Shown here one piece after another: positions 48,770 to 63,240 of a stretch of DNA of 64,000 nucleotides; position 1 is the stretch's first letter; every line of letters begins with the position of its first letter. The notes below the pieces were generated by a model. That model saw only the letters and a list, made by a program, of their open reading frames with translations. It did no database searches and had not been told where the DNA came from. The translations under genes and the position numbers were made by a program. The stretch spans positions 372,001 to 436,000 of the forward strand of contig NC_020134.1 in NCBI RefSeq assembly GCF_000331995.1. Reading direction: 5' to 3'. Source of the stretch: Thermoclostridium stercorarium subsp. stercorarium DSM 8532. Its GTDB lineage: Bacteria; Bacillota; Clostridia; DSM-8532.

Positions 48770-50066
48770 GAGAGTTGTCAAGAATTTTGTGTCTGATTAA
48801 AGTAACGTAACTGGAAAATTTGTTGTATTTCATAAATGTGAGCATTTATCATTGGTACCGCTTTTTTCCATTTTGTCCGCCTCAAGTTCTCCCTCTGTAA
48901 ATATATGTTAATTTCCAATACTTCGACAGAGTTAAAGTAACCACCCGATCTTATCCGAATTTTTTCAACTAGACTGTTGATACTCTCTACACTGTTGGTA
49001 GTATAAACATGCTTCCTCAAGGATTCGGGGTATTTAATGAAAGCCATATAATGTTCTGCTTTCTCCATGAGAATGTTCATATATCGGCTATATTTACTCT
49101 TAAATTTACTGCAAAGGTCATAAAACTTTTGAACAGCTTCATCAAAGGAAGAAGCAAATTTTATTTTATCGAGTTCTTTATTGAATTCTGCGGCATCAGC
49201 TTTGGTCATGTATTTGCGGATATTTCTCTGAAGGTGTACAAAACAGAGCTGATGATCAGCATATGGATATACAGCTTTGACGGTCTCGATAATACCTGGG
49301 AAATCATCACTTACAACCACTAAAACTCGTTTAAGACCGCGGTTTATCAAGTCTTCAAAGACCTTGTTCCAATCGGCTCTGTTTTCTTTGCCGAAGAAGG
49401 TGTAAAGGCCAAAGATGTCTTTCTTACCTTCCATATCAACGCCAAGGATTATGTAGCATGCGGCTTTCTTCACTTTTGAGCCGTCTTTTATCTCACAATG
49501 ATAAGCATCGATTAATAAAGCAAACACCGATTCGGGTAATTCCCGTTGTTTGAAAAGGTCTAATTCACTTTTTAGGTCATCTTTGATTTTGTTGAGTTCA
49601 TCATCAGAGTAAGGAAGGTTGAGGCTTTTGAGGGTATTTAAGAGAGAAGATTCTGAATAACCGTTGACAACAAGGGACATAAGAAGGTCTGTATAGGATT
49701 CATCCACCCTTTTATACGGTTCAGGTAGGATGTGGGGTCTGAAATCGCCAGTGCGAGTTCTTGGGACAGAGATGTCCAGGTTACCCATAGGTGTACCAAG
49801 TTTTCTATCATAAAAGCCGTTGCCTTTGTCGTTCTCGTTTTTCAAGAGATAGATTTGGCGTTCAGACAACATAAACCAGTCGAGCAAATCCTCCAGCAAC
49901 TTTTTGAGGGCAGGGCGTGATGGATCTGAATCAGAGCAATACTGGTTTAATACTTTTTCAACCGCCATATTTTTGACTGTTTCATAATAGGTATTTTTAT
50001 CCATAATTACCAGCCTCCTTTGTGATTTTATTATACACCAGACACAATTTTATTTTAACACCCCGA
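48770..50066 (-). mobile_element. IS256-family insertion sequence, copy 1
   Basis: About 1,297 bases shared base for base, as far as I can read, with copy 2 at 60350-61646 (offset 11,580). The ends are imperfect inverted repeats sharing TGTGTCTG as inner core: the left begins GAGAGTTGTCAAGAATTTTG, and the right, read inward, begins GGGTGTTAAAATAAAATTG. No 8-9-base target duplication is seen. It carries one transposase gene. Confidence 0.9.
48778..50004 (-). CDS. IS256-family transposase (copy 1)
   Basis: 408 residues, full length and open. The DDE residues are in LLIDAYHCEIK, VVSDDFPGI and YTTNSVESINSLVEK, with the family's CFVHLQRNIRKYM block between. It moves the element by a copy-out mechanism through a circular intermediate. 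GGAGGCTGG lies before the ATG. The protein is identical to copy 2, which suggests a recent duplication. Confidence 0.96.
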   Translation of the reverse strand: MDKNTYYETVKNMAVEKVLNQYCSDSDPSRPALKKLLEDLLDWFMLSERQIYLLKNENDKGNGFYDRKLGTPMGNLDISVPRTRTGDFRPHILPEPYKRVDESYTDLLMSLVVNGYSESSLLNTLKSLNLPYSDDELNKIKDDLKSELDLFKQRELPESVFALLIDAYHCEIKDGSKVKKAACYIILGVDMEGKKDIFGLYTFFGKENRADWNKVFEDLINRGLKRVLVVVSDDFPGIIETVKAVYPYADHQLCFVHLQRNIRKYMTKADAAEFNKELDKIKFASSFDEAVQKFYDLCSKFKSKYSRYMNILMEKAEHYMAFIKYPESLRKHVYTTNSVESINSLVEKIRIRSGGYFNSVEVLEINIYLQRENLRRTKWKKAVPMINAHIYEIQQIFQLRYFNQTQNS

Positions 50067-51807: not shown

Positions 51808-52278
51808 TCACTCCTTTTGTACTTTTTTTAGAACTCCTAAAGGTTCAAAATAAACTATGTAATCTCCAACTTTGTGGCAAATACCATACTTTTCTTTGTA
51901 ATATTGAATTGCCTCATCAATAAAACGTTCGGATACACCCAAAAATTCAGCTAACTCAAATCTATTTCTGATACAATGTTTAGATGCCTCTATCAGGCTA
52001 TTCAAACTTACCAGTCGTTCGTATGCCCAAGCGCGGGCCCGACGTTCCTGTTTTCTGTTTTCTACTTTACATTGGTTCAATATATTTCCATGGGTCGTAT
52101 AATGATGTCCCAATTCTTCGGCTAAAATACAGGCTTTTTCAGAATTTGTTTCGATTGAAGAATTAATTATTATATTTCCGTCAAAGTATAATCCTTTTAA
52201 TTTCCCGATTTCCTTTTCATATACATTTATACCTTCGTTGTCGGCCTTGATGAGAAGAAATTCATAAAGCAAACACAT
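51808..52278 (-). CDS. ImmA/IrrE-family metallopeptidase-like protein
   Basis: 156 residues. In phages and ICEs this family cleaves the neighbouring repressor to induce the element. The zinc motif is altered: ILAEELGHHYTTHGN has Glu where the first His of HExxH is expected, a change I believe is common in this phage subgroup. The rest fits (RARAWAYERLVSL for the third ligand region). It lies four bases from the integrase gene and 15 from the repressor gene, which supports the link. Confidence 0.85.
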   Translation of the reverse strand: MCLLYEFLLIKADNEGINVYEKEIGKLKGLYFDGNIIINSSIETNSEKACILAEELGHHYTTHGNILNQCKVENRKQERRARAWAYERLVSLNSLIEASKHCIRNRFELAEFLGVSERFIDEAIQYYKEKYGICHKVGDYIVYFEPLGVLKKVQKE

Positions 52279-52293: not shown

Positions 52294-52635
52294 TTACTTT
52301 TGATCCTTCTTTTTTGAAATAATGAACTGTATGAAGTCATTGATTTGTTTTATATCTTCCTCAGTAAGTTCAACGCCATCAGGAATATGTGCGGCAACAG
52401 TGATGGGCTTTTTAACATTATTTTTGGAAGCTGTATCGTTCCAGCCCATTAAATAAGAAGGTGTCGTTCCTAATGCCTCTGCAATTTTTTCAATCTTATC
52501 AGAGGGAATATTAGTCACAATGTTATTTTCATATTTGTAAATTGTTTGTTTGGTGGAATCAATATATTTGGCCAATTCTTCCTGTGTCATGCCTTTTTCT
52601 ATTCTGAGTTTTTTTATTCTATCACCAATAGCCAA
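52294..52635 (-). CDS. Phage repressor, XRE family
   Basis: 113 residues with an N-terminal helix-turn-helix: MTQEELAKYIDSTKQTIYKY, then EALGTTPSYLMGW. The C-terminal half is short and has no LexA-like peptidase, which fits control by the adjacent ImmA-like protein. The start is TTG at 52635 after AGGAGG. It should hold the lysogenic state by binding the AGTAACTT operators in the divergent promoter region. Confidence 0.93.
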   Translation of the reverse strand: MAIGDRIKKLRIEKGMTQEELAKYIDSTKQTIYKYENNIVTNIPSDKIEKIAEALGTTPSYLMGWNDTASKNNVKKPITVAAHIPDGVELTEEDIKQINDFIQFIISKKKDQK

Positions 52636-52666: not shown

Positions 52667-52703
52667 AGTAACTTAATTATATCACAAAATTGTTATTTGT
52701 AAA
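52667..52703 (-). promoter_or_regulatory. Leftward repressor promoter with operator half-site
   Basis: On the minus strand: TTTACA (52703-52698), 16 bases, TATAAT (52681-52676). The half-site AGTAACTT (52667-52674) lies just after the -10, where binding would block the repressor's own transcription. Confidence 0.65.
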
Positions 52704-52715
52704 TACAAAAATATC

Positions 52716-52765
52716 TTGACAAGTTACTTTTGCGTGGTATAATGAAAGTAACTTAATAAGTTACT
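52716..52765 (+). promoter_or_regulatory. Rightward early promoter with operators
   Basis: Perfect TTGACA (52716-52721), 16 bases, perfect TATAAT (52738-52743). The half-site AAGTTACT (52721-52728) sits inside the spacer, and the perfect palindrome AGTAACTTAATAAGTTACT (52747-52765) covers the start of transcription. Confidence 0.85.
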
Positions 52766-52781
52766 GAAAGGAGGGAGTGAT

Positions 52782-52982
52782 TTGATAAAGACAAACGAAT
52801 TGAAAGGAATAATAGCTAAAAATGGACTTACACAAAAACAGGTTGCTGAAAGGATAGGTATCGCTCCAAAAACATTTTACGAGAAGATGAAAAAAGGAGT
52901 ATTTGGTAGTGATGAAATTCAAAAAATGATAGAAATATTAAACATTAATAATCCTTGTGAAATTTTTTTTGCCAAGGAGTAA
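52782..52982 (+). CDS. Cro-like XRE-family regulator
   Basis: 66 residues, one helix-turn-helix domain (GLTQKQVAERIGIAPKTFYE) and little more, the typical size of phage Cro proteins. The start is TTG at 52782 after GGAGGGAGTGA. It is the first gene from the rightward promoter and probably competes with the repressor for the same operators. Confidence 0.88.
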   Translation: MIKTNELKGIIAKNGLTQKQVAERIGIAPKTFYEKMKKGVFGSDEIQKMIEILNINNPCEIFFAKE

Positions 52983-52996
52983 CTTAAAAGGTTACT
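52978..52996 (+). promoter_or_regulatory. Third operator copy, downstream of cro
   Basis: AGTAACTTAAAAGGTTACT matches the main operator at 17 of 19 bases and keeps the eight-base inverted arms with one mismatch. It overlaps the cro stop codon. Confidence 0.7.
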
Positions 52997-53021: not shown

Positions 53022-53216
53022 ATGCCCGGAACGCCGTATGATGATCTCCCCAACGTTTTAACCCCAAAGGATGTTCAGCGTTTTCTGGGGTGGAACAAGA
53101 ATCAAGTTTACAACCTTTTCCGTAGCAAAAAGTTTCCCGCCGAGAGAATTGGCAACAAATACATAATTCCGAAGCAGAGGTTTCTCTATTGGTTGGGGGT
53201 AAGAGAAAACTCATAG
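53022..53216 (+). CDS. Helix-turn-helix protein, excisionase-like
   Basis: 64 residues: LTPKDVQRFLGWNKNQVYNL followed by FPAERIGNKYIIPKQRFLYW, the winged MerR-type fold of excisionases and small phage DNA-binding proteins. It may act as Xis or as an early regulator. AAAGGAGGACA precedes the ATG. Confidence 0.8.
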   Translation: MPGTPYDDLPNVLTPKDVQRFLGWNKNQVYNLFRSKKFPAERIGNKYIIPKQRFLYWLGVRENS

Positions 53217-60109: not shown

Positions 60110-60350
60110 GTGAAGCTCACGGAAAAGCAGAAAGCATTTTGCGATTATTACATTGAAACGTTAAATGCGACTGAAAGCTACAAAAGGGCAGGATATAGAG
60201 TTAAATCGGATGCTGCGGCTAGAGTTAACGCTTCAAGATTGCTAACAAATGCTAACGTTAGGAAATACATTGAAGAGAGGATGAAGCAAAAAGAATCCGA
60301 GCGCATCGCCTCACAAAATGAGGTTCTGGAATTCCTCACTCGCGTCATGG
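60110..60350 (+). pseudogene. terS: Terminase small subunit, truncated by IS256
   Basis: GTG 60110 after GGTGAGGTGAT reads TEKQKAFCDYYIETLNATES, then YKRAGYRVKSDAAARVNAS and NVRKYIEERM, the DNA-binding N-terminus of SPP1-like TerS. After about 80 codons the frame runs into the IS256 element and ends in SCQEFCV. The C-terminal oligomerisation part is missing. Confidence 0.9.
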
Positions 60351-61646
60351 AGAGTTGTCAAGAATTTTGTGTCTGATTAAAGTAACGTAACTGGAAAATT
60401 TGTTGTATTTCATAAATGTGAGCATTTATCATTGGTACCGCTTTTTTCCATTTTGTCCGCCTCAAGTTCTCCCTCTGTAAATATATGTTAATTTCCAATA
60501 CTTCGACAGAGTTAAAGTAACCACCCGATCTTATCCGAATTTTTTCAACTAGACTGTTGATACTCTCTACACTGTTGGTAGTATAAACATGCTTCCTCAA
60601 GGATTCGGGGTATTTAATGAAAGCCATATAATGTTCTGCTTTCTCCATGAGAATGTTCATATATCGGCTATATTTACTCTTAAATTTACTGCAAAGGTCA
60701 TAAAACTTTTGAACAGCTTCATCAAAGGAAGAAGCAAATTTTATTTTATCGAGTTCTTTATTGAATTCTGCGGCATCAGCTTTGGTCATGTATTTGCGGA
60801 TATTTCTCTGAAGGTGTACAAAACAGAGCTGATGATCAGCATATGGATATACAGCTTTGACGGTCTCGATAATACCTGGGAAATCATCACTTACAACCAC
60901 TAAAACTCGTTTAAGACCGCGGTTTATCAAGTCTTCAAAGACCTTGTTCCAATCGGCTCTGTTTTCTTTGCCGAAGAAGGTGTAAAGGCCAAAGATGTCT
61001 TTCTTACCTTCCATATCAACGCCAAGGATTATGTAGCATGCGGCTTTCTTCACTTTTGAGCCGTCTTTTATCTCACAATGATAAGCATCGATTAATAAAG
61101 CAAACACCGATTCGGGTAATTCCCGTTGTTTGAAAAGGTCTAATTCACTTTTTAGGTCATCTTTGATTTTGTTGAGTTCATCATCAGAGTAAGGAAGGTT
61201 GAGGCTTTTGAGGGTATTTAAGAGAGAAGATTCTGAATAACCGTTGACAACAAGGGACATAAGAAGGTCTGTATAGGATTCATCCACCCTTTTATACGGT
61301 TCAGGTAGGATGTGGGGTCTGAAATCGCCAGTGCGAGTTCTTGGGACAGAGATGTCCAGGTTACCCATAGGTGTACCAAGTTTTCTATCATAAAAGCCGT
61401 TGCCTTTGTCGTTCTCGTTTTTCAAGAGATAGATTTGGCGTTCAGACAACATAAACCAGTCGAGCAAATCCTCCAGCAACTTTTTGAGGGCAGGGCGTGA
61501 TGGATCTGAATCAGAGCAATACTGGTTTAATACTTTTTCAACCGCCATATTTTTGACTGTTTCATAATAGGTATTTTTATCCATAATTACCAGCCTCCTT
61601 TGTGATTTTATTATACACCAGACACAATTTTATTTTAACACCCCGA
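60350..61646 (-). mobile_element. IS256-family insertion sequence, copy 2
   Basis: Same sequence and orientation as copy 1. Left junction ...GTCATG|GAGAGTTGTC; right junction ...ACACCCC|GAGAGTTTG or up to two bases later. No target duplication is found, because the flanks belong to different genes (terS and terL). This indicates a deletion next to the element. Confidence 0.92.
60358..61584 (-). CDS. IS256-family transposase (copy 2)
   Basis: 408 residues, identical to the copy 1 protein, with the same DDE residues and ribosome site. It is open and presumably active. Confidence 0.96.
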   Translation of the reverse strand: MDKNTYYETVKNMAVEKVLNQYCSDSDPSRPALKKLLEDLLDWFMLSERQIYLLKNENDKGNGFYDRKLGTPMGNLDISVPRTRTGDFRPHILPEPYKRVDESYTDLLMSLVVNGYSESSLLNTLKSLNLPYSDDELNKIKDDLKSELDLFKQRELPESVFALLIDAYHCEIKDGSKVKKAACYIILGVDMEGKKDIFGLYTFFGKENRADWNKVFEDLINRGLKRVLVVVSDDFPGIIETVKAVYPYADHQLCFVHLQRNIRKYMTKADAAEFNKELDKIKFASSFDEAVQKFYDLCSKFKSKYSRYMNILMEKAEHYMAFIKYPESLRKHVYTTNSVESINSLVEKIRIRSGGYFNSVEVLEINIYLQRENLRRTKWKKAVPMINAHIYEIQQIFQLRYFNQTQNS

Positions 61647-61790
61647 GAGTTTGTAAACTATGAGCTTGAAAAAGATAATAACGGCAATTTTAAGGCCGAA
61701 TTTCCGGATAAAAATAACCATACGATCGATGCTGTCAGATATGCCCTGGAAGATGATATGAAGTCAGGAGGGCTATCAATTCTAAAGTGA
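61647..61790 (+). pseudogene. terL: Terminase large subunit, C-terminal remnant
   Basis: Forty-seven codons in frame after the IS256 end: EFVNYELEKDNNGNFKAEF, then PDKNNHTIDAVRYALEDDM. The HTIDAVRYA block is the closing motif of the TerL nuclease domain (last catalytic Asp). The ATPase and most of the nuclease, about 370 residues, are gone. Confidence 0.85.
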
Positions 61791-61806: not shown

Positions 61807-63240
61807 TTGCTGCTTAATCTTTTTAATTTCAGGAATTTTAAAGACTTATTCCGCAATGATATAAACATGATGACTGTAGAAGAAATTTTATATAACGAAA
61901 TCAAAGAGTTCCAGGCATCCGATAGAAGGGCCTGGATGGTTATTGGCGATAGATATTACCGGTGCGAAAATGACATCCTTAACAGGCGTATAGTACGCCA
62001 TACAGAGAGCGGAGACATTGAAGATAGGTCAAAAGCAAACAATAGGTTGGCCCATGGTTTTGTTAAAAACCTTGTGGATGAAAAAATAGGATATCTGCTT
62101 ACAAAGGATTATTCGCTGAAGTGCGACAATAAAGAATATATTGAGAAAGTTAAAAACGTCTTGGGTAAATATTTTCAATACACCCTTACCAGGCTCGGAT
62201 ATGAAGCGTCGAATAAAGGCATAGCATGGTTACAAGTTTACATAAATGAGCAGGGCAAATTTGGAATGATGATAATTCCTGCTGAACAGTGCGTTCCACT
62301 CTGGAAAGATAACACTCACACTGAACTTTATGGCATGATTAGATATTATGTGCAGACAGTTTATGAAGGCAAGGAAAAGAAGCAGATCACTCGCGTGGAA
62401 TATTACACGGATAAAGAGGTTTATTTTTATGTTCTCGATAATGACCATCTTATCCCGGATATAGAGCAATATGAAGGAGGGCCCATACTACACTATAAAA
62501 AAGGGGAAGAAGGCCGAAGTTGGGGGAAAGTGCCTTTTATTGCCTGGAAGAATAACCATCTTGAATATCCGGATGTTAAATTCATTAAATCGCTTGTGGA
62601 CGCTTACGATAAGTCACGGAGTGAAATAGATAATTTCATTGAAGAAACAAAAAATCTTATCTATGTTTTAAAAGGCTATGGCGGAGAAAATTTATCTGAT
62701 TTCATGAAAGACCTTAATTACTACCGGGCTATAAAAATAGATGATCCAGAGCATGGTGGAGTTGATACACTAACACCGAAAATAGATATTCAGGCAGCAA
62801 AGGAACATTTCGAACAATTAAAGCGGGATATAAATGAGTTTGGCCAAGGTGTGCCCAAGGACCTTGACAAATATGGTAATTCTCCCAGTGGGACAGCATT
62901 GAAGTTTTTATATAGTGGGCTGGATTTAAAATGCAATCACTTGGAAGTAGAATTTAGACAGTCATTTAATCAGCTTTTGTATTTTGTAAACAGATATCTC
63001 GCAGAAAACGGTCAGGGAAATTACGAGAATGAAAATGTAGAGCTAATTTTCAATAGAGATATACAGATTAATGAAACTGAAACTATCAATAATTGTGTTA
63101 ACAGTAAAGGCATTATTAGCGATGAGACTATCCTTGCAAATCATCCATGGGTGTCTGATGTAGAAGAAGAATTAAAGCAGATTGAGAAAGAAAGAAAATC
63201 AGAGGAACCGCCAATGTTTGAAGCAGGTGATGAAGGATGA
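61807..63240 (+). CDS. Phage portal protein, SPP1 gp6-like
   Basis: 477 residues, the right size. Family text includes VKNLVDEKIGYLLTKDYSL near residue 85, SRSEIDNFIEETKNLIYVLKG in the middle and GNSPSGTALKFLYSGLDLK near 365. Twelve copies form the channel for DNA. The TTG start at 61807 is uncertain; ATG 61867 would give a protein beginning MMTVEEILYN. It follows the terL remnant by 16 bases. Confidence 0.92.
   Translation: MLLNLFNFRNFKDLFRNDINMMTVEEILYNEIKEFQASDRRAWMVIGDRYYRCENDILNRRIVRHTESGDIEDRSKANNRLAHGFVKNLVDEKIGYLLTKDYSLKCDNKEYIEKVKNVLGKYFQYTLTRLGYEASNKGIAWLQVYINEQGKFGMMIIPAEQCVPLWKDNTHTELYGMIRYYVQTVYEGKEKKQITRVEYYTDKEVYFYVLDNDHLIPDIEQYEGGPILHYKKGEEGRSWGKVPFIAWKNNHLEYPDVKFIKSLVDAYDKSRSEIDNFIEETKNLIYVLKGYGGENLSDFMKDLNYYRAIKIDDPEHGGVDTLTPKIDIQAAKEHFEQLKRDINEFGQGVPKDLDKYGNSPSGTALKFLYSGLDLKCNHLEVEFRQSFNQLLYFVNRYLAENGQGNYENENVELIFNRDIQINETETINNCVNSKGIISDETILANHPWVSDVEEELKQIEKERKSEEPPMFEAGDEG

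What the first reader, a model, noticed from the sequence alone, without database searches (positions are those of the whole stretch)
52667..52996. Prophage switch with repeated AGTAACTT operators, one of them past cro
The perfect dyad AGTAACTTAATAAGTTACT covers the rightward start site, half-sites lie in both promoters, and a 17-of-19 copy overlaps the end of cro. Repressor and Cro probably share them. The downstream copy could allow looping or act as a roadblock.
Basis: partly seen in the sequence, partly recalled or inferred. Interest (0 to 1): 0.5.

Follow-up and report, generated by a model that had tools for sequence, protein, structure and literature searches.

The report
Prophage switch with operator ending antirepressor
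This dormant virus keeps itself off with a repressor that also has a binding site exactly at the end of its antagonist's gene, and related viruses keep that site at a fixed distance from a run of T's, which suggests that the repressor cuts short leaky copies of the antagonist's message.

Summary
The dyad at 52747-52765 is perfect; its only other full copy in the 2.97-Mb genome (52978-52996) covers the stop codon of the rightward gene. The "half-site" in the rightward promoter is an imperfect full dyad (52711-52727) around the -35.

The interpretation needs correction. The "cro" is a homologue of MOR, the antirepressor of Lactococcus phage TP901-1, and the layout is TP901-1's known one (OL, OR, OD). 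In relatives the operators, OD included, change with CI's recognition helix and not with MOR's, so CI is the supported reader.

Apparently undescribed (in what I could read): OD is coupled to a T7-8 tract in mor's last codons, ending 8-9 bp before OD in 84 of 89 Clostridia-type places. All 46 TP901-1-type loci (27 distinct) have it too, although operator sequences differ. Fifteen CI-less S. thermophilus phage loci (3 distinct) encode the same amino acids without the tract or OD. One locus (C41431) keeps tract and dyad without a CI found beside it.

I favour a roadblock: CI on OD stops polymerase in the T-tract, before MOR's CI-binding end and stop codon are made. That step is inferred; looping remains a rival.

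The parts
52294..52635 (-). ci: 113-aa HTH_3 repressor
   Evidence: Pfam HTH_3 E 1.1e-17; CI homologue lies divergently beside mor in 87 of 89 places
51808..52278 (-). IrrE/ImmA-like M78 peptidase beside ci
   Evidence: Pfam Peptidase_M78 E 3e-9; TP901-1 has a metallo-protease gene in the same place
52667..52674 (+). single operator half-site AGTAACTT just downstream of the leftward (ci) promoter
   Evidence: by eye
52676..52703 (-). leftward ci promoter: TTTACA, 16 bp, TATAAT read on the minus strand
   Evidence: by eye; not tested
52711..52727 (+). OR-like operator: imperfect 17-bp dyad ATATCTTGACAAGTTAC around the rightward -35
   Evidence: by eye; better versions in relatives
52716..52743 (+). 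rightward (lytic) promoter: TTGACA, 16 bp, TATAAT
   Evidence: by eye; not tested
52747..52765 (+). OL-like operator over the lytic start site: perfect dyad AGTAACTTAATAAGTTACT
   Evidence: profile hits PDB MOR 6to6 E 4.4e-8; hhalign to 15 TP901-1-type MORs probability 98.5, E 1.9e-15
52963..52970 (+). T8 tract in the ATT TTT TTT (Ile-Phe-Phe) codons of mor
   Evidence: codon bias against other Ile and Phe codons of mor in 79 loci; run lengths
52978..52996 (+). OD: distal CI operator, covering the mor stop codon 52980-52982; starts 231 bp after OL
53022..53216 (+). next lytic gene (HTH_17 protein), whose ribosome site lies right after OD
   Evidence: Pfam HTH_17 E 1.4e-9

Best explanation
It is a CI/MOR lysogeny switch of the TP901-1 layout with three CI operators: one over the lytic start, one over the lytic -35, and a distal one, OD, covering the mor stop codon. 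In the lysogen, CI on the first two blocks the lytic promoter. CI on OD is a second lock: it stops RNA polymerase that leaks through while the enzyme is transcribing the T8 tract, whose weak RNA-DNA hybrid favours stalling, backtracking or release. The message then ends in or before the Ile-Phe-Phe codons and before the stop codon. MOR made from it lacks the end that grips CI, and its ribosome stalls on a stopless mRNA, so leakage gives inert MOR and no downstream lytic message. Shown by sequence: the operators, CI as the supported reader, MOR homology, nucleotide-level conservation of the T-tract and its fixed distance to OD. Inferred: the roadblock, the truncated mRNA and its consequence.
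For: Strict dyads occur only at OD and before mor in 79 distinct loci. OD matches its own phage's upstream operators better than shuffled ones (2.892 vs 2.670 +/- 0.023, 0 of 5000) and follows the CI recognition helix. T-tract codons: Ile ATT 70 of 71 vs 245 of 532 elsewhere in mor; first Phe TTT 79 of 79 vs 110 of 165; second Phe TTT 69 of 74. Tract-to-OD gap is 8 or 9 in 84 of 89 although it changed at least 15 times on the tree. All 46 TP901-1-type loci (27 distinct) read TAT TTT TTT; all 15 CI-less loci (3 distinct) do not. The stop codon never precedes the tract end (0 of 79). In TP901-1 a MOR cut at codon 63 is inactive and Phe67 lies in the CI interface (PMC11149083 passages). PL is repressed almost as well without OD (PMC4892519 section), so OD's conservation asks for a role other than promoter repression. 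LacI at O3 truncates lacI mRNA with SsrA tagging (PMC3711431 passage).
Against: No transcript or binding data. The same report that PL is repressed almost as well without OD also means that no strong role of OD has been seen in those reporters. A mutated OL is tolerated if OR and OD are present, which looping explains at least as well. The CI-less contrast is one lineage (3 distinct loci). C41431 (L199) keeps the T-tract and a degenerate dyad although no divergent CI was found beside it. A weak helical-phase preference exists (p 0.044-0.099 for periods 10-11 bp). The polymerase edge distance used in the geometry is recalled, not measured here.
Confidence: 0.5

Rival explanations
1. OD serves DNA looping: CI oligomers bridge OD and the promoter operators over about 230 bp, as in the published TP901-1 hexamer-wheel model. 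The T-tract is an A-tract bend two helical turns from the OD centre that helps the loop.
For: Published model of a hexameric CI around which DNA loops (PMC4941734 passage). OL loss tolerated if OR and OD are present (PMC4892519 section). Here OL and OD are 231 bp apart (22.0 turns at 10.5). Tract centre to OD centre is about 21 bp.
Against: OL-OD distances run from 224 to 263 bp with weak phase preference (70 of 79 loci; R 0.199, p about 0.06 at 10.5 bp). The same OD serves CIs with short (60 of 78 at up to 160 aa) and long (14 of 78 at 190 aa or more) C-terminal parts. PL repression is reported almost the same without OD.
Confidence: 0.3
2. The T-tract reflects only the need for Ile/Tyr-Phe-Phe in MOR plus AT-rich codon use, and its distance to OD is simple descent.
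For: YFF is needed for CI binding in TP901-1. The hosts are mostly AT-rich (general knowledge). C41431 keeps the tract without a CI beside it. The CI-less set is one lineage.
Against: Strong bias against other Ile and Phe codons of the same genes and against other Tyr and Phe codons in TP901-1-type mor. CI-less relatives keep the amino acids with other codons, in three codon forms. The gap changed at least 15 times but stayed 8 or 9 in 76 of 79.
Confidence: 0.12
3. The 66-aa protein is a true Cro that binds all four sites and competes with CI.
For: It has an HTH and lies divergently beside ci.
Against: MOR homology. Its recognition helix does not follow the operator changes that CI follows. 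TP901-1 MOR apparently does not bind DNA efficiently alone.
Confidence: 0.06
4. U UUU UUN followed by the OD stem is a -1 ribosomal frameshift signal giving a second MOR form.
For: The heptamer pattern and the spacing to a dyad resemble known signals (recalled).
Against: No consistent product: -1 frame 0-130 codons (median 7), +1 frame 0-93 (median 5) in 79 loci. In TP901-1 the -1 frame meets UAA at once (by eye).
Confidence: 0.02

Closest known systems
Lactococcus phage TP901-1 CI/MOR switch (OR, OL, OD)
   Same: Divergent ci and mor; an operator at the start of the lytic transcript, one between the promoters, and a distal one at the end of mor (PMC7250872 introduction; PMC4892519 section). 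MOR is homologous. Neighbouring metallo-protease gene. T7 tract before OD.
   Different: CI shows no BLASTP similarity (E 1.8) and is 113 rather than 180 aa; operator code GTAACTT instead of AGTTCAYR; the middle operator lies on the lytic -35. MOR-like protein not hit by Pfam DUF739.
Staphylococcus phage phi13 CI/MOR switch
   Same: OL, OR and OD bound by CI in gel shifts (PMC8516035 section); TAT TTT TTT before OD in its mor.
   Different: AGTTCAYR operators; CI with a peptidase-like C-terminal part.
E. coli LacI at O3
   Same: Repressor on an operator at the 3' end of a gene roadblocks it; truncated transcript and SsrA tagging (PMC3711431 passages).
   Different: LacI cuts short its own gene; here the repressor would cut short its antagonist's. 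No T-tract is mentioned in the passages seen.

Membership tests
TP901-1-type CI/MOR switch | Divergent ci and small HTH gene with three related CI operators, one at the distal end of that gene | tested here: met
   CI binding itself not tested
TP901-1-type CI/MOR switch | Rightward gene encodes a MOR homologue | tested here: met
   PDB MOR E 4.4e-8; hhalign probability 98.5, E 1.9e-15
TP901-1-type CI/MOR switch | MOR hit by Pfam DUF739 (PF05339) | tested here: not met
   no DUF739 hit up to E 0.01, whereas TP901-1 MOR scores 144 bits
TP901-1-type CI/MOR switch | CI similar in sequence to TP901-1 CI | tested here: not met
   BLASTP E 1.8 over 10 residues
TP901-1-type CI/MOR switch | OM motifs (TCAAnAAAA type) flanking the middle operator | tested here: inconclusive
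   similar A-rich motifs seen by eye in L004 and L010; unclear in the window; not counted
TP901-1-type CI/MOR switch | MOR binds CI and relieves repression | not testable with these tools
   needs protein work
lambda-type CI/Cro switch | Cro binds the same operators as CI | tested here: inconclusive
   covariation with CI only; no binding test
Repressor roadblock with truncated mRNA (LacI O3 type) | Operator at the 3' end of the silenced gene, before polymerase can pass the stop codon | tested here: met
   stop codon never before the T-tract end (0 of 79)
Repressor roadblock with truncated mRNA (LacI O3 type) | Truncated transcripts when the repressor is bound | not testable with these tools
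   no transcript data

The most novel reading that the evidence does not exclude
CI/MOR phages of several Firmicutes carry a conserved repressor-gated truncation device: a T7-8 tract in the last codons of mor, about 17 bp before the centre of a CI operator. When CI is bound, leaky lytic transcription ends inside the codons that MOR needs to bind CI, giving a stopless message and an inert antirepressor. The repressor thus disarms its antagonist at the level of mRNA 3' ends, and the device survives change of operator sequence.
Probability: 0.35. Interest if true: 0.75.

Novelty: new variant of a known kind. Interest (0 to 1): 0.55.

Why it matters
TP901-1-like switches keep a third operator at the end of mor although repression of the lytic promoter is reported to be almost the same without it. 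The T-tract and its fixed spacing suggest a specific, testable job for that operator: cutting the antagonist's message short. If true, it explains how a two-protein switch keeps leaky antirepressor from flipping a lysogen. The natural pairs of operator and CI recognition helix found here also give a start for orthogonal repressors.

Tried and rejected
Frameshift signal: the -1 and +1 frames in 79 loci give no consistent product. Intrinsic terminator: no hairpin in the 35 nt before the tract (mean z 0.04). Strict loop phasing: weak (R 0.199, p about 0.06 at 10.5 bp; p 0.044-0.099 for periods 10-11), neither shown nor excluded. More operator copies in the genome: none for the pattern. Nucleotide relatives in named phages: 17 records, with short matches mainly in recombinase and peptidase genes.

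In print: listings (0 papers; 0 papers), 67, 68, 81, 82 and 92, and word searches for 'tract' and 'roadblock' in PMC7250872, PMC8516035, PMC11149083, PMC4941734 and PMC4892519, gave no mention of a T-tract or roadblock at OD (the one 'tract' was anatomical). The primary OD papers (Johansen 2003; Pedersen and Hammer 2008) were not read, only what others cite from them, so 'undescribed' is provisional. Papers seen as whole sections: PMC7250872, PMC8516035, PMC4892519. As passages: PMC11149083, PMC4941734, PMC3711431, PMC10310618, PMC11014978, PMC4132739. The rest as listings.

Rows dropped or set by hand: of 89 mor places, L137 (mor frame broken there) and L135 (no upstream DNA) were left out; 87 became 79 at under 90% mor identity. 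77 entered the covariation test, where L107 (OD halves with C and A) was put in class A by hand. L108's OD was mis-picked and taken. OL was placed in 70 of 79. L183 (mor broken) and L192 (other protein) were left out of the TP901-1-type set. One search counted 28 distinct TP901-1-type and 4 CI-less loci because it compared from the read start; aligned at YFF they are 27 and 3 (L199 is a near copy of L166). A divergent repressor-like ORF was found in 43 of 46 and in 0 of 15; the three misses are L141 and L162 (little upstream DNA) and L199. The mechanical dyad search put the centre 17.0-18 bp after the tract in 25 of the 28; L147, L163 and L188 were off, though by eye a half-site sits at the usual place. 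In one search own-pair similarity was weak for L166, L189 and L199. Loose dyads (5 of 7 paired arms) are not improbable by chance; the strict count is the one relied on, and it matches 50 of 79 ODs.

Full report
WHAT IS THERE. The dyad AGTAACTTAATAAGTTACT at 52747-52765 is perfect apart from its odd central base. A 17-of-19 copy lies at 52978-52996; no other copy was found in the window or in the 2.97-Mb genome. By eye the rightward promoter is TTGACA (52716-52721), 16 bp, TATAAT (52738-52743), so the first dyad covers the start site. The leftward promoter carries only a half-site (52667-52674). The 8-base half-site itself is not enriched in the window (46 seen, 55.6 expected).

GENES. Leftward: a 113-aa HTH_3 repressor (CI), an M78 peptidase and a tyrosine integrase. 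Rightward: the 66-aa HTH protein, an HTH_17 protein, YqaJ and RecT. The 66-aa protein is a MOR homologue. A profile of 15 relatives has the solved MOR of phage TP901-1 as best PDB match (E 4.4e-8, profile positions 5-65). Profile-profile comparison with 15 TP901-1-type MORs gives probability 98.5 and E 1.9e-15 over 65 columns, with Ile-Phe-Phe aligned to Tyr-Phe-Phe. Pfam DUF739, which TP901-1 MOR hits, does not reach it, and the CI shows no BLASTP similarity to TP901-1 CI.

RELATIVES. A scan by CI gave 61 loci, of which 14 have the MOR-like gene (one more tblastn hit, L061, lies on the CI match itself). A scan of viral contigs by the MOR-like alignment gave 74 (its pattern uses neither operators nor the gene end). 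With the window that makes 89 places; CI lies divergently beside the gene in 87. In 79 distinct loci strict dyads fall 50 times at the mor end, 47 times in the 100 bp before mor and 0 times elsewhere in 414,605 bases, with none in shuffled sequence.

WHO READS OD. The three outer bases of OD half-sites match the upstream operators of the same phage better than shuffled pairings (2.892 of 3 vs 2.670 +/- 0.023, 0 of 5000, n = 79). In 77 loci the CI residue before KYE/RYE is Tyr, Phe or His where OD position 3 is A and Ser, Gln or Ala where it is C or T (Z 20.7; one mixed OD, L107, was set to A by hand). The best column of the MOR-like protein reaches Z 5.1 and lies outside its recognition helix. 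Among these 77 loci, Lys/Arg in the same CI motif is replaced only in L012 and L118, the two with TTAACTT operators. Relatedness inflates such scores, but both proteins were tested on the same loci. That MOR also touches OD is neither shown nor excluded.

THE T-TRACT. Run length before OD is 8 in 73, 7 in 11 and 6 in 4 of 89; the remaining place, L137, has a broken mor frame. The gap to the 17-bp dyad is 9 in 52 and 8 in 32 of 89. Ile is ATT in 70 of 71 there, against 245 of 532 elsewhere in the same genes; the first Phe is TTT in 79 of 79 against 110 of 165; the second TTT in 69 of 74, and in 5 more loci it is a Leu codon. On a quick protein tree of mor the gap changed at least 15 times, yet is 8 or 9 in 76 of 79. 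The reading frame of OD shifts with it, so neither the stop position nor the tail amino acids are what is held constant.

TP901-1 AND ITS KIN. TP901-1 itself ends mor with TAT TTT TTT shortly before OD, whose middle holds the stop codon. All 46 TP901-1-type loci examined (27 distinct) read TAT TTT TTT. In the 28 other Tyr codons are 54 TAT and 24 TAC, other Phe codons 45 TTT and 13 TTC. A mechanical search puts the dyad centre 17.0-18 bp after the tract in 25 of those 28, although OD sequences differ widely (GTTCAT, GTTCAA, GTTTAA, GTTTCT, TATGTG, AGTTAA and ACTTTC types). Most ODs resemble their own upstream operator (15.2 vs 13.1 of 18 for shuffled pairs; weak for L166, L189, L199). A divergent repressor-like ORF lies beside mor in 43 of 46. 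In 15 S. thermophilus phage loci (3 distinct) no such ORF was found and no OD is visible; they keep the amino acids YFF but read TAC TTC TTT (6), TAT TTT TTC (6) or TAT TTC TTC (3). That these phages are virulent is recalled; SW12 has an XRE regulator on the same strand. This is one lineage. Against a strict link, C41431 (L199) keeps tract and a degenerate dyad with no divergent CI found.

HOW IT PROBABLY WORKS. For looping: the hexamer-wheel model for TP901-1 (PMC4941734 passage), and the report that losing OL alone does not abolish repression while OR and OD are present (PMC4892519). Against it: OL-OD distances of 224-263 bp with weak phasing, and short or long CI C-terminal parts with the same OD (60 and 14 of 78). 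[quoted passage not shown] For roadblock: the fixed tract-OD geometry. The stop codon never lies before the tract end (0 of 79). In TP901-1 a MOR cut at codon 63, lacking the YF motif, is inactive, and Phe67 lies in the CI interface. A message ending in the tract would code for an inert, stopless MOR; reporters without mor would not show it. LacI at O3 is a precedent for truncation and SsrA tagging. Frameshifting is disfavoured.

VERDICT. The finding is real. The switch has the TP901-1 layout and a MOR homologue, with a different CI and operator code. A distal operator is known in kind. The coupled T-tract was not found described in what I could search; the two primary OD papers were not readable here. 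Confidence: about 0.95 for three CI operators in a CI/MOR-type switch, about 0.8 for a nucleotide-level role of the T-tract (lowered from 0.85 after the recount of the CI-less set and C41431), about 0.5 for roadblock truncation.

Noticed in passing
60110-61790: The terminase small subunit is cut by a Mutator/IS256-type transposase gene (60358-61584), and of the large subunit only a C-terminal remnant (61602-61790, Terminase_3C, below Pfam's cut-off) was seen before an intact-looking SPP1-type portal gene (61807-63240). The prophage is probably unable to package DNA although its switch looks intact.
   Followed up: partly
48778-50004 and 60358-61584: Two copies of the same 408-aa Mutator-type transposase gene with identical translations, one on each side of the switch region.
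   Followed up: no
CI proteins of the 79 relatives: The same CI DNA-binding end occurs with short (60 of 78 at up to 160 aa) or long (14 of 78 at 190 aa or more) C-terminal parts; the five long ones printed look LexA/S24-like by eye.
   Followed up: partly
L007, L022: Loci with CI and one or two promoter dyads but no mor by tblastn; no distal dyad by the strict pattern, as expected if OD belongs to mor.
   Followed up: partly
L004, L010, upstream of mor: A-rich TCAAnAAAA-like stretches left of the -35 dyad, resembling the OM motifs proposed as MOR sites in TP901-1 (by eye).
   Followed up: no
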